Below, piece after piece: positions 29,901-37,535 of a stretch of 64,000 nucleotides of DNA. Location: NCBI GenBank assembly GCA_009778065.1, contig WRKM01000008.1, positions 1-64,000 of the forward strand, in the 5' to 3' direction. The notes below the pieces were generated by a model. It worked only from the letters and a program-made list of their open reading frames with translations. It did no database searches and was not told where the DNA came from. Origin of the DNA: Oscillospiraceae bacterium. Its GTDB lineage: Bacteria; Bacillota; Clostridia; Oscillospirales; Ruminococcaceae. How positions within the stretch are numbered: the stretch's first letter is position 1; each line of letters begins with the position of its first letter. The position numbers and the translations under genes were made by a program.

Positions 29901-31904
29901 TCATTCGCTCTTTTCCTCCGTTTTTTTAGTATCATCCCGTTTTATCTGATAAAATTGCAATACTTCCTTGACTTTTTTGTCCGAAACATCAATATCATCG
30001 TCAGTAAATCTGTGTTCTATAATTATTTGTTCAGCCTTTTTGCGTTGCTTTTCAGTCAAGGCATTGAACTTCTTCCACCACTCAATGGTAATATTACTTG
30101 TCCGCTCGTCCACATCGTCATAAGGTGTGGGTTTATCGCCGTAATACTCACGGCGTTTTACAATGTCATACTTGTAACGCTGAATAATTAACGCTTCCGG
30201 CATCCATAGAATTTTGTGAAACTCATCAATGTCCTTACCAAAAGCCGCTTCAAAAAAAGTTTTGCCTCTACCGATTTTCCCATGAGTGGAGTTGAGAACA
30301 GCCTGTATTGCACGGATAAATTTTCTATTCCAGTGGGGTTTGCCTATATAATCACGATTACGAAAATAATCAGGGTCATCAATAGGATGATATTTCATCG
30401 GAAAAGAGTAAATTGTTACACCGAGGTCGCATAACTCAATGTTCATTCGCATACGCTCGTATAATTCATCGGGGTGGTCATTGAAGTTGTAGAGCAAATA
30501 GTTAGACAGATTATTAATCTTATATTTTATCGCAGTTTTTACGGCTTTCTCATAAGATTTTTTCATACTCCAGTGGTCAAATGCAATACGGAGCGGACGT
30601 ATTGCAGTTTCAGAAATCTTTTTCATTTTCTTATCAGTTACAAGTCGCCCATCTAAACCTTGATTGAAGTCGATAAACCGGACTCGTGAATTTTGTTTGA
30701 AGTGCTTATCGTATAGCAATTTTGCAAATTGATGAATTGTTTCAACAGCTTCTTTTGTGGCAGTTTCAAAATAAAGTAAACCTAATTCCTCGCGCTTGCT
30801 GTAAAAATCTCCCTTTTCCTTTCCATCAAGCCGTTCAGATATTTCATCATATATCTGTATAAGTTTTCTGTAATAAGCGCGGTCATTAAATACTCTTTTT
30901 CTTGCCCACACTCCTAAATTAAACCCATTAATAAGATTTCTATAAGCAATGTCATACTCATTTGCAGGGATATAAGTTGCACCTTTTTCAAAGCCGCAGT
31001 CTTTAATTTCATCAATAATTTTGTCAAAACAATCAGAAGCAAACACGTTGTTATCCATAAGGAGTAAATCTCTTTTTGCTCCGAAACACTCATCAATCTT
31101 TTCAATTTTTTCTTTTATCCCGATAAAATTGCAATAATCGGGTTCTAATTTCGGGACGGCGCAAAAGGAACAGCGATTCGTGCAACCGCGTGTCATATAT
31201 CCAAAGTAAGCGTTCTCAGTCGGATAACGATAATCAATTTCGTCAAGAATAGAATAGTCTAATGGGAGTTCGTCGATTATAACATCACCTTTTTTGTCAT
31301 TATCATAAGCAAAAGGCACATCTAATAAGCCAACATATGGTTTTATTCCTGTTTCTTTTTCGATATAATCCGGCACAAGACTTGCGGCAATTCCACCGAC
31401 ACTTACGCCTTTGACTTTTTTGCAAACCTTTTTTGCGAACTCAATTGTTGCAATATTTTGCTTCCAGTAAAACGTAAACAATGTTGTAACACATACTCTA
31501 TCGAATTTAGGAAAATCCTCAGTTTTATTACGCTTGTTGTACACGGATAAAACATCAAGCAAATCATTAATGGTACACTCCTCAACATCTGCGGATATTT
31601 CGGAAAAATCCGCAATAGGTTTAAGGAAAGACTTGTTTCCGGTTTTAATATAACTCACTAATTCTGATGAACCACGTTTAACAATGTAATTATATATAAC
31701 CTTATCAATTGGGGAGTTGCCTATATCAATACTGCCGAAATAATCCTCAAACAATAATTGTGCCGCAAATAGTTTTAAATCGCCCTTATAAAATCGGACA
31801 TTATCGCCCCTGCACCGATAGTAAGAGGCGATTTTCATAAGACCCATAGGCGGGTATTTGTTTTTATAATTAGGTTCTAACAACAGAATTTTGCGCTTGC
31901 TCAT
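29901..31904 (-). CDS. radical SAM protein with N-terminal B12-binding-like domain
   Basis: RGCTNRCSFC (CX3CX2C) and KILLLEPNYKNKYPPMGLMKIASYYR N-terminus; ATGA overlap with the upstream gene. Confidence 0.85.
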   Translation of the reverse strand: MSKRKILLLEPNYKNKYPPMGLMKIASYYRCRGDNVRFYKGDLKLFAAQLLFEDYFGSIDIGNSPIDKVIYNYIVKRGSSELVSYIKTGNKSFLKPIADFSEISADVEECTINDLLDVLSVYNKRNKTEDFPKFDRVCVTTLFTFYWKQNIATIEFAKKVCKKVKGVSVGGIAASLVPDYIEKETGIKPYVGLLDVPFAYDNDKKGDVIIDELPLDYSILDEIDYRYPTENAYFGYMTRGCTNRCSFCAVPKLEPDYCNFIGIKEKIEKIDECFGAKRDLLLMDNNVFASDCFDKIIDEIKDCGFEKGATYIPANEYDIAYRNLINGFNLGVWARKRVFNDRAYYRKLIQIYDEISERLDGKEKGDFYSKREELGLLYFETATKEAVETIHQFAKLLYDKHFKQNSRVRFIDFNQGLDGRLVTDKKMKKISETAIRPLRIAFDHWSMKKSYEKAVKTAIKYKINNLSNYLLYNFNDHPDELYERMRMNIELCDLGVTIYSFPMKYHPIDDPDYFRNRDYIGKPHWNRKFIRAIQAVLNSTHGKIGRGKTFFEAAFGKDIDEFHKILWMPEALIIQRYKYDIVKRREYYGDKPTPYDDVDERTSNITIEWWKKFNALTEKQRKKAEQIIIEHRFTDDDIDVSDKKVKEVLQFYQIKRDDTKKTEEKSE

Positions 31905-36494: not shown

Positions 36495-37535
36495 TTATTC
36501 CGGAGCCTCTAATAAAATTCTACGTTCGATAAGTTCACGTTCACGCTCTATTTCACGTTTCAATTCGTCCTCCGTCGGCAAGAACGACATATATTTTGTA
36601 GCGAATAGGGTTTCTTTATCCGCAAGAACGGAATATTTCGCAATGGTTTCGTCTTTTTCAGAACAGAGGATTATACCAATAGTAGGATTATCGTCCGCTT
36701 GCTTGACTTTATCGTCAAAGAGTCGAACATAAAAATCAATCTGCCCGACATCTTGATAGGTTAGTTTGCTCGTCTTTAAGTCAATAACGACAAAACATTT
36801 CAAGATAAAGTTATAAAACACCAAGTCGATGTAATAATGTTCCCCGTGGTCTGTAGTTATCCGCTTTTGCCGTGCAACGAACGAGAATCCCTTACCGAGT
36901 TCGAGCAGAAAATCCTGCAACTTATCAATAAGTTCCTGCTCTAATTCAAGTTCGTGATAATCCCGATTTTCTTTCAAATCAAGAAACTCAAGGATATACG
37001 GGTCTTTCAGCAGATACGATGGGTCTGCTTGCGGTTCTGTGGTGTATATCTCGTTTTTTACACTTTCTTTCCCACTTTCCTGTGTAGCGAGCAACCGTTC
37101 ATAATAAAACGAGTTGATTTGCCGTTCAAGCTGACGTACAGTCCAGTTGCAAGCAGTACTCTCTTCGGCGTAATAATTACGTTTTTCTGCGTTTTCAATA
37201 CGGATTAAAACTCTATAATGCGTCCAACTCAATTCGGGACTCAGTGAGTCCCGAATTGGAAACAACGTATAAAACTTACGCATCTTCCGTAATGTGGATT
37301 CATCAAAGCCTTTGCCGAACTCGGCTGTAAGCTGTTCTGACAGATATTTAATCAGCCCTTTTCCGTATTCGGCACGGTCGCCAATGGATTCGGATATTTC
37401 CTTACCGATTTCCCAATACGCCCCAACCATCGTTGAATTTATTACCGTATAGGCATTATTTTTTGCGATCAGAATCGTGTCTCGTACTCGTTCATGGGTG
37501 TTGCTCTTAATTATCTCCAACTCGTTGTTCATCAT
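36495..37535 (-). CDS. DUF1016/YhcG family PD-(D/E)XK nuclease
   Basis: N-terminal DUF1016_N (AYWEIGKEISE...GKGLIKYLSEQLTAEFGKGF) and YIDLVFYNFILKCFVVIDLKTSKL; ATG at 37535 has SD GAGGAGA (track start 37562 is TTG). Confidence 0.9.
   Translation of the reverse strand: MMNNELEIIKSNTHERVRDTILIAKNNAYTVINSTMVGAYWEIGKEISESIGDRAEYGKGLIKYLSEQLTAEFGKGFDESTLRKMRKFYTLFPIRDSLSPELSWTHYRVLIRIENAEKRNYYAEESTACNWTVRQLERQINSFYYERLLATQESGKESVKNEIYTTEPQADPSYLLKDPYILEFLDLKENRDYHELELEQELIDKLQDFLLELGKGFSFVARQKRITTDHGEHYYIDLVFYNFILKCFVVIDLKTSKLTYQDVGQIDFYVRLFDDKVKQADDNPTIGIILCSEKDETIAKYSVLADKETLFATKYMSFLPTEDELKREIERERELIERRILLEAPE

What the first reader, a model, noticed from the sequence alone, without database searches (positions are those of the whole stretch)
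29901..37535. Candidate undescribed system: YhcG nuclease - NurA - HerA - Hsp90/GHKL ATPase - radical SAM operon
Five minus-strand genes are tightly packed: gaps of 17, 11 and 12 nt, then an ATGA overlap between the GHKL and radical-SAM genes. Seen directly: a DUF1016/YhcG nuclease, a NurA-like protein with a DGS motif, a HerA-like P-loop ATPase with an N-terminal HAS-like barrel, a protein with Hsp90/GHKL N, G1 and G2 motifs, and a 667-aa protein with CX3CX2C and a B12-binding-like N-terminus. Established: HerA-NurA resects DNA ends in archaea, and bacterial HerA ATPases act in anti-phage systems (e.g. HerA-Sir2, HerA-DUF4297). Inference: the radical-SAM enzyme could make a modification or small molecule while HerA-NurA, gated by the GHKL ATPase, processes foreign DNA. 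I know of no named system with this exact composition, but cannot search. The operon sits between housekeeping mnmA and a metabolic operon, as expected for a defence cassette.
Basis: partly seen in the sequence, partly recalled or inferred. Interest (0 to 1): 0.88.

Follow-up and report, generated by a model that had tools for sequence, protein, structure and literature searches.

The report
Radical-SAM-linked HerA–NurA restriction-like cassette
A mobile four-gene bacterial cassette pairs a DNA-pulling motor and nuclease with a radical SAM enzyme and an Hsp90-like ATPase; the same enzyme–ATPase pair recurs beside other known anti-virus DNA systems where their DNA-marking genes would normally be, so it probably marks "self" DNA in a way not yet described.

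Summary
Five tightly packed minus-strand genes lie at 29901-37562. HerA and NurA are confirmed: HerA matches Deinococcus HerA by sequence (E 1e-35), and NurA matches Deinococcus and Sulfolobus NurA by predicted fold (E 1e-11, 1e-8). The core is four genes, NurA-HerA-GHKL-rSAM. About 75 of 93 loci with HerA relatives, from Bacillota to a methanogen, keep GHKL and rSAM. YhcG is an occasional extra (3 of 93). The cassette is patchy (4 of 297 genomes in the order) and also occurs on predicted viral contigs.

It also sits beside PbeA/PbeC (no DndC in those genomes), beside DISARM DrmA-DrmB without a methyltransferase, and, with a DndB/DpdB-like DGQHR protein, beside an SNF2 helicase on alphaproteobacterial plasmids. 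Conversely, distant NurA-HerA pairs sit with type IIG and other DNA methyltransferases. The rSAM model resembles cobalamin-dependent methylases.

Best reading: a restriction-modification-like system with rSAM-GHKL as the self-marking module and HerA-NurA as the DNA-degrading module. DNA modification is inferred, not shown. No named system of this composition was found in PADLOC-DB 2023 or the open-access papers searched.

The parts
29901..31904 (-). Radical SAM protein (rSAM), 667 aa, N-terminal cobalamin-binding-like domain and CX3CX2C at residues 241-248; proposed modification enzyme
   Evidence: ORF; Cys241/245/248 invariant in 49 relatives; AF2 pLDDT 91.6; Foldseek MgmA 2.4e-7, TsrM 5e-7, MiaB 1.3e-4; phage homologue passes Pfam B12-binding PF02310
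31901..33574 (-). Hsp90-like GHKL ATPase, 557 aa; partner of rSAM in several different systems
   Evidence: Pfam HATPase_c_3 1.9e-9; HtpG by profile 8.6e-11; invariant E28/N32, D78xxxG82, G107-FRGIG112; adjacent to rSAM in 23 of 23 loci compared over four contexts
33587..35272 (-). HerA-type FtsK/HerA translocase ATPase, 561 aa
   Evidence: D. radiodurans HerA 7f6d E 1.1e-35, profile 4.4e-65 with shared Walker A; DE of Walker B at 448-449 conserved
35284..36477 (-). NurA-type nuclease, 397 aa (RNase H-like fold); invariant D87-G-S/A, E209, D231-G-S-L, H372
   Evidence: AF2 pLDDT 89; Foldseek drNurA 1.5e-11 and SsoNurA 1.2e-8; invariant residues
36495..37535 (-). YhcG/DUF1016 PDDEXK nuclease, accessory gene, probably not part of the core
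   Evidence: Pfam YhcG_C 3.3e-54 and DUF1016_N 6e-42; PADLOC PDC-S02 7e-133; found beside the cassette in only 3 of 93 loci, plus L182. ATG start at 37535; a TTG start at 37562 is also possible

Best explanation
Genes 29901-36477 form a mobile four-gene, restriction-modification-like anti-invader cassette. rSAM and the GHKL ATPase together are the modification (self-marking) module: the radical SAM enzyme, of the cobalamin-dependent methylase type, places a chemical mark on host DNA, and the GHKL ATPase works as an ATP-driven clamp or gate on DNA or on the complex. HerA (hexameric translocase) and NurA (nuclease) are the effector module: HerA pumps unmarked DNA into NurA, which degrades it. 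The rSAM-GHKL pair is exchangeable between effector modules (NurA-HerA, PbeA-D type, DISARM DrmAB, an SNF2 helicase with DGQHR/ParB proteins), and NurA-HerA is exchangeable between modification modules (rSAM-GHKL, or type IIG/N6-N4 methyltransferases). Shown here: gene content, folds, conservation as a unit, patchy and cross-phylum distribution, partner exchange. Inferred: that the substrate is DNA, what the mark is, that unmarked DNA is the target, and the GHKL role.
For: Cassette: four-gene order in most loci, tiny gaps (medians 12, 11, -1 nt), co-divergence. HerA/NurA identity. Partner exchange from rSAM-first searches, which do not presuppose HerA: Pbe context L137/L138/L139 (PbeA 3e-243, PbeC 6e-226, dnd_assoc_4 7e-12, DGQHR_dnd_1 2e-53) with no DndC in those genomes; DISARM context L153/L161 (DrmA 2e-171, DrmB 2e-65) without a [DNS]PP[YFW]-bearing methyltransferase; DGQHR-rSAM-GHKL on 12 alphaproteobacterial plasmid records; ParB-like or DGQHR partner plus rSAM in predicted prophages. 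A Pbe rSAM and a DISARM rSAM are sister sequences (100/99). rSAM and GHKL co-diverge across contexts (r 0.85, 0 of 1000). Reciprocal exchange: all 8 distant NurA-HerA loci carry a type IIG-like RM enzyme, 6 also another methyltransferase. rSAM fold. Known biology: Pbe acts only together with DNA modification and 165 PbeAC homologues lack a known modification gene (PMC6459918); DrmAB is repressed by DNA base methylation (PMC9142583); GHKL ATPases of the MORC type work in restriction-modification systems (PMC2292703); DndB and DpdB, both DGQHR proteins, belong to DNA-modification systems (model names; own knowledge).
Against: No direct evidence that rSAM acts on DNA. No DNA-recognition domain was identified. 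The N-terminal domain lacks an obvious DxHxxG cobalamin motif, as does TsrM (own knowledge). Fold similarity of rSAM is moderate (TM 0.3-0.5) and its relatives act on peptides, proteins, RNA or sugars. DISARM can discriminate by DNA structure, so a missing methyltransferase need not be replaced. Some rSAM loci lack GHKL (L139, L158, L159, L184, L187). Neighbouring genes are not clearly enriched in defence genes.
Confidence: 0.55

Rival explanations
1. Signal-type defence: rSAM makes a small molecule or alarm signal, or acts as a redox/oxygen-sensitive sensor, and GHKL relays it to switch on whichever effector lies next door (HerA-NurA, Pbe, DrmAB). No DNA mark is involved.
For: Effector partners are unrelated to one another while rSAM-GHKL stays together, as expected of a sensor module too; viperin shows that a radical SAM enzyme can defend by making a small molecule (own knowledge); GHKL folds are signalling ATPases.
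Against: The partner systems are exactly those that otherwise carry DNA-modification genes, and DGQHR/DndB-like or ParB-like partners are typical of DNA-modification systems. Predicted prophages carry rSAM with only a ParB/DGQHR partner and no effector, which fits self-protection of phage DNA better than signalling.
Confidence: 0.2
2. rSAM modifies a protein of the system (for example GHKL), as MgmA methylates a protein glutamine; the modified GHKL then regulates the effector.
For: Closest fold match is MgmA, a protein methylase; rSAM and GHKL are neighbours in both gene orders and co-diverge.
Against: rSAM occurs without GHKL beside ParB/DGQHR or SNF2 genes (L158, L159, L184, L187) and beside Pbe in L139, so GHKL cannot be its only substrate.
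Confidence: 0.12
3. A DNA-repair operon: HerA-NurA resects double-strand breaks as in archaea and Deinococcus, with rSAM and GHKL as repair accessories.
For: HerA and NurA are homologous to the D. radiodurans end-resection pair (PMC9960219).
Against: Very patchy: 4 of 297 genomes of the order, 13 of 399 of the phylum; near relatives spread over Spirochaetes, Planctomycetes and a methanogen; carried by predicted viral contigs; linked to restriction methyltransferases in the sister branch.
Confidence: 0.1

Closest known systems
Bacterial HerA-NurA of Deinococcus radiodurans (7f6d)
   Same: HerA homologous over both halves with the same Walker A; NurA of the same fold; adjacent genes
   Different: Here part of a mobile operon with rSAM and GHKL; only about 13% identity for NurA
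PbeABCD / CxC-DndE (phosphorothioation-associated) systems
   Same: The rSAM-GHKL pair of the window family sits next to PbeA-PbeC-dnd_assoc_4 in L137 and L138 (rSAM alone in L139)
   Different: The window has no PbeA/PbeC; the Pbe loci found here have no DndC in the genome
DISARM (DrmA-DrmB)
   Same: DrmA-DrmB-NERD helicase-rSAM-GHKL in L153 and L161
   Different: Window has no DrmA/B; those loci lack the usual DrmMI/DrmMII methyltransferase
Dnd / Dpd DNA-modification systems (DndB, DpdB)
   Same: A DGQHR (DndB/DpdB-like) protein directly precedes rSAM-GHKL on alphaproteobacterial plasmids
   Different: No DndACE or DpdA-type enzyme seen in those neighbourhoods; radical SAM enzyme instead
MADS (mad8)
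   Same: Weak match of the window HerA to mad8 (8.5e-8)
   Different: No other MADS gene matches
Prokaryotic MORC/paraMORC and MZA GHKL ATPases
   Same: GHKL ATPase in restriction-type operons with helicases and nucleases (PMC2292703); weak MzaB match for one homologue
   Different: Window GHKL is nearest Hsp90/HtpG in profile searches; partner enzymes differ
Cobalamin-dependent radical SAM methylases (MgmA, TsrM)
   Same: Cobalamin-domain plus radical SAM layout and CX3CX2C
   Different: Sequence too distant for Pfam's cut-off; substrate unknown

Membership tests
Bacterial HerA-NurA pair | HerA with HAS barrel plus RecA-like core homologous to drHerA | tested here: met
   (E 1.1e-35; profile 4.4e-65 over N- and C-terminal parts)
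Bacterial HerA-NurA pair | NurA nuclease fold with conserved acidic residues | tested here: met
   for the fold; invariant D87, E209, D231, H372, but their match to known catalytic residues was not computed
Bacterial HerA-NurA pair | DNA end resection activity | not testable with these tools
   needs biochemistry
PbeABCD | PbeA and PbeC genes | tested here: not met
   PADLOC scan of the five window proteins gives no Pbe hit; relatives of rSAM-GHKL do sit with PbeA/PbeC
Dnd phosphorothioation | DndC PP-loop enzyme in the genome | tested here: not met
   no TIGR03183 match in G000
DISARM | DrmA, DrmB and DrmM methyltransferase | tested here: not met
   no Drm hit for window proteins
MADS | mad1-mad8 gene set | tested here: not met
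   only mad8, weakly
SIR2-HerA / DUF4297-HerA | Sir2 or DUF4297 partner | tested here: not met
   HerA only weakly like PADLOC HerA (8.5e-4)
Restriction-modification system (functional) | a DNA mark made by one module and sensed by the other | not testable with these tools
   supported only by context exchange
Radical SAM superfamily | CX3CX2C cluster motif and radical SAM fold | tested here: met
Cobalamin-dependent radical SAM methylase | N-terminal cobalamin-binding domain | tested here: inconclusive
   fold match to MgmA and TsrM; PF02310 above cut-off only in a phage homologue
MiaB-type methylthiotransferase | three further conserved Cys for a second cluster | tested here: not met
   only Cys241, 245 and 248 are invariant
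GHKL ATPases (Hsp90-like) | N, G1, G2 boxes | tested here: met

The most novel reading that the evidence does not exclude
The rSAM-GHKL pair is a new general class of DNA-modification (self-marking) module, a radical-SAM counterpart of DNA methyltransferases and Dnd/Dpd enzymes, that plugs into at least four restriction machineries (HerA-NurA, Pbe, DISARM, SNF2-DGQHR), and that some phages carry to protect their own DNA.
Probability: 0.5. Interest if true: 0.93.

Novelty: new variant of a known kind. Interest (0 to 1): 0.82.

Why it matters
If the pair marks DNA, it is a new chemistry of self/non-self discrimination in prokaryotes and would explain modification-orphan loci. Xiong et al. reported 165 of 553 PbeAC loci without any known modification gene and suggested that Pbe pairs with other DNA modifications (PMC6459918); some of those may carry rSAM-GHKL. 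It also gives HerA-NurA, known from DNA end resection, a restriction-type role with two interchangeable modification partners. The idea is directly testable by mass spectrometry of DNA from existing isolates that carry the cassette.

Tried and rejected
YhcG as a core gene: rejected, 3 of 93 loci. HerA-first search of viral contigs found nothing, and the NurA query found no plasmid; rSAM-first searches worked better. Empty-site comparison at mnmA: gene order there is not conserved in the genus, so no clean insertion site. Counting the rSAM genes of L023, L024 and L057 as the same family: rejected, they lie on a separate long branch with a different motif context. Defence-island enrichment: about 11 of 110 neighbouring proteins against about 7 of 99 control proteins hit PADLOC at 1e-30; too small a difference to use. 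MiaB-like sulfur insertion: unlikely, no second cysteine triad. Phosphorothioation by Dnd enzymes: no DndC in the window genome or in three rSAM-Pbe genomes. Literature: full-text searches found no paper describing HerA-NurA with radical SAM and GHKL, or rSAM in Pbe/DISARM loci; subscription papers are not held and bioRxiv coverage is minimal.
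Full report
Observation. The five ORFs, their strand, gaps and the ATGA overlap are exactly as reported. YhcG is a standard DUF1016/YhcG nuclease. 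HerA is homologous to D. radiodurans HerA (E 1.1e-35; profile 4.4e-65), and shares its unusual P-loop, GISG(L/V)A(A/T)KTSYA. NurA has no significant sequence relative in Pfam, NCBIfam, PADLOC or the PDB. Its AlphaFold2 model from 50 relatives (pLDDT 89) finds D. radiodurans NurA (E 1.5e-11) and Sulfolobus NurA (E 1.2e-8) as the only two matches below 0.001. GHKL carries the N, G1 and G2 boxes as invariant columns and matches HtpG. The radical SAM protein has an invariant CX3CX2C. Its model (pLDDT 91.6) is nearest to the cobalamin-dependent methylases MgmA and TsrM, then MiaB; a phage homologue passes the Pfam cut-off for the B12-binding domain.

The unit. Of 93 loci with a HerA ORF, 89 have NurA, 78 GHKL, 78 rSAM and 3 YhcG; three of the rSAM hits are unrelated enzymes, so about 75 remain. 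Several of the rest are contig ends or belong to the methyltransferase branch described below. Gaps are tiny (medians 12, 11 and -1 nt) and the four proteins diverge together (56 complete loci, Mantel r 0.87-0.92, 0 of 500 permutations). So the cassette is NurA-HerA-GHKL-rSAM; YhcG is an accessory here (also L031, L043, L182).

Mobility. The cassette is in 1 genome of the 9 sampled in the genus and 4 of 297 in the order (the HerA query). The window's HerA groups with an uncultured Clostridia bin, a Selenomonadales bin and a Treponema bin (100/99), and the same larger clade holds a Methanomicrobiales archaeon, a planctomycete and Synergistota. Some of these are metagenome bins, where contamination is possible, but isolates such as Desulfosporosinus, Selenomonas flueggei, Acetobacterium dehalogenans and Roseburia faecis carry it too. 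Two IMG/VR contigs carry the complete cassette, one near a tyrosine recombinase (L156, L157).

rSAM-GHKL is a module of its own. Searches that start from rSAM do not presuppose HerA. In the phylum sample, 7 of 399 genomes have it: four beside NurA-HerA, three beside a different operon. That operon encodes a large sigma-4-like protein, PbeA (PADLOC 3e-243; TIGR04095 DNA phosphorothioation restriction enzyme 1e-149), PbeC (6e-226; DndD-like), a dnd_assoc_4-like protein (7e-12), then rSAM and, in two of three, GHKL; in L137 a DndB-like DGQHR protein follows (TIGR04172 2e-53). None of these three genomes has DndC. In a class sample around one of them, another locus (L153) has DrmA (2e-171) and DrmB (2e-65) of DISARM and a NERD helicase directly before rSAM-GHKL. 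An IMG/VR contig (L161) has the same order at 37-45% identity. No methyltransferase motif of the [DNS]PP[YFW] type appears in these loci except in one helicase. On plasmids, 12 alphaproteobacterial records carry the family; in the six inspected the order is DGQHR-rSAM-GHKL, mostly near an SNF2 helicase/ParB module, and often near a PIN_8 nuclease with a second GHKL. In predicted prophages rSAM has only a ParB-like or DGQHR partner (L158, L159, L162).

A last rSAM-first sample of the window's own class gave 11 of 342 genomes: eight NurA-HerA loci including the window (one, L186, with a ParB gene inserted and a second GHKL), one contig-edge rSAM-GHKL, one ParB-rSAM beside an integrase, and one SNF2-ParB-rSAM. 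So nearly every rSAM of this family that can be judged sits beside a DNA-restriction or ParB/DGQHR gene.

Exchange. In a tree of the family, a Pbe-linked rSAM (L138) and a DISARM-linked one (L153) are sisters (100/99), and neither context is one clade. rSAM and GHKL nevertheless diverge together across contexts (23 loci, r 0.85, 0 of 1000), although the gene order is GHKL-rSAM in HerA loci and rSAM-GHKL elsewhere. The reverse exchange also exists: the eight more distant NurA-HerA loci (L023-L030) all carry a type IIG restriction-methyltransferase (PADLOC E 0 for L024) and six a second DNA methyltransferase.

Mechanism. Pbe defence depends on a DNA mark (phosphorothioate), and 165 of 553 PbeAC loci lack a known modification gene (PMC6459918). 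DrmAB is repressed by DNA methylation, with DrmMI/DrmMII as the usual markers (PMC9142583). DGQHR proteins (DndB, DpdB) belong to DNA-modification systems. GHKL ATPases of the MORC/MutL type operate in restriction-modification operons (PMC2292703). rSAM-GHKL takes the position of the marking genes in all these settings, and the rSAM fold is that of a methylase. The simplest common explanation is that rSAM, with GHKL, marks DNA, and the neighbour acts on DNA without (or with) the mark. In the window the actor is HerA-NurA: HerA would pump the DNA into NurA, as in the resection complexes (PMC9960219). Steps shown: gene content, folds, co-conservation, exchange. Steps inferred: DNA as substrate, nature of the mark, direction of recognition, GHKL as clamp or gate. 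Alternatives (a signal or small molecule; a protein substrate; repair) are scored in the rivals; none is excluded by experiment.

Novelty. PADLOC-DB 2023 has no model for rSAM, GHKL or NurA of this cassette, and full-text searches of the held open-access library found no description of it. This does not exclude a preprint or a subscription paper. I class it as a new variant of modification-linked restriction; if a radical-SAM DNA mark is proven, it would be a new kind.

Noticed in passing
L023-L030 (distant NurA-HerA branch): NurA-HerA with a type IIG-like restriction-methyltransferase (all 8) and a second DNA methyltransferase (6): a methylation-linked HerA-NurA system that may itself be undescribed.
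   Followed up: partly
L153:3459-13844 and L161:1996-12478: DISARM-like DrmA-DrmB-NERD helicase operons with rSAM-GHKL and no methyltransferase nearby.
   Followed up: partly
L158:7251-10620, L159:7361-10614, L184:8795-12021: ParB-like protein (DGNRR-type motif) followed by rSAM in predicted prophages or next to an integrase; possibly phage-borne self-protection.
   Followed up: partly
L163:6750-11609 and L164:7342-11591: Large viral contigs where a distant rSAM homologue with a B12-binding domain lies next to a RAMP (Cas7/DevR-like) protein, another small gene and a second radical SAM gene.
   Followed up: no
L146:17218-20734, L150:6221-9665, L152:14309-17792: PIN_8 nuclease paired with a second Hsp90-like GHKL ATPase on alphaproteobacterial plasmids: a separate GHKL-nuclease pair.
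   Followed up: no
L070:14166-17727; L185:1984-4271: A 260-272 aa protein resembling a nucleotide-cyclase domain (read by eye, not tested) beside a second GHKL next to rSAM in some Clostridia.
   Followed up: no
L154:7453-9049: A decayed rSAM (several stop codons) beside an intact GHKL near a PbeC-like gene.
   Followed up: no
L057:7793-12355 and L003: Broken copies: NurA and GHKL each split in two in Gordonibacillus; a TAG stop inside HerA in L003.
   Followed up: no
window 39123-44021: An ECF-type transporter (S, T and two ATPase genes) with a GntR regulator and a PfkB-type kinase in one operon next to the cassette; read by eye, not tested.
   Followed up: no
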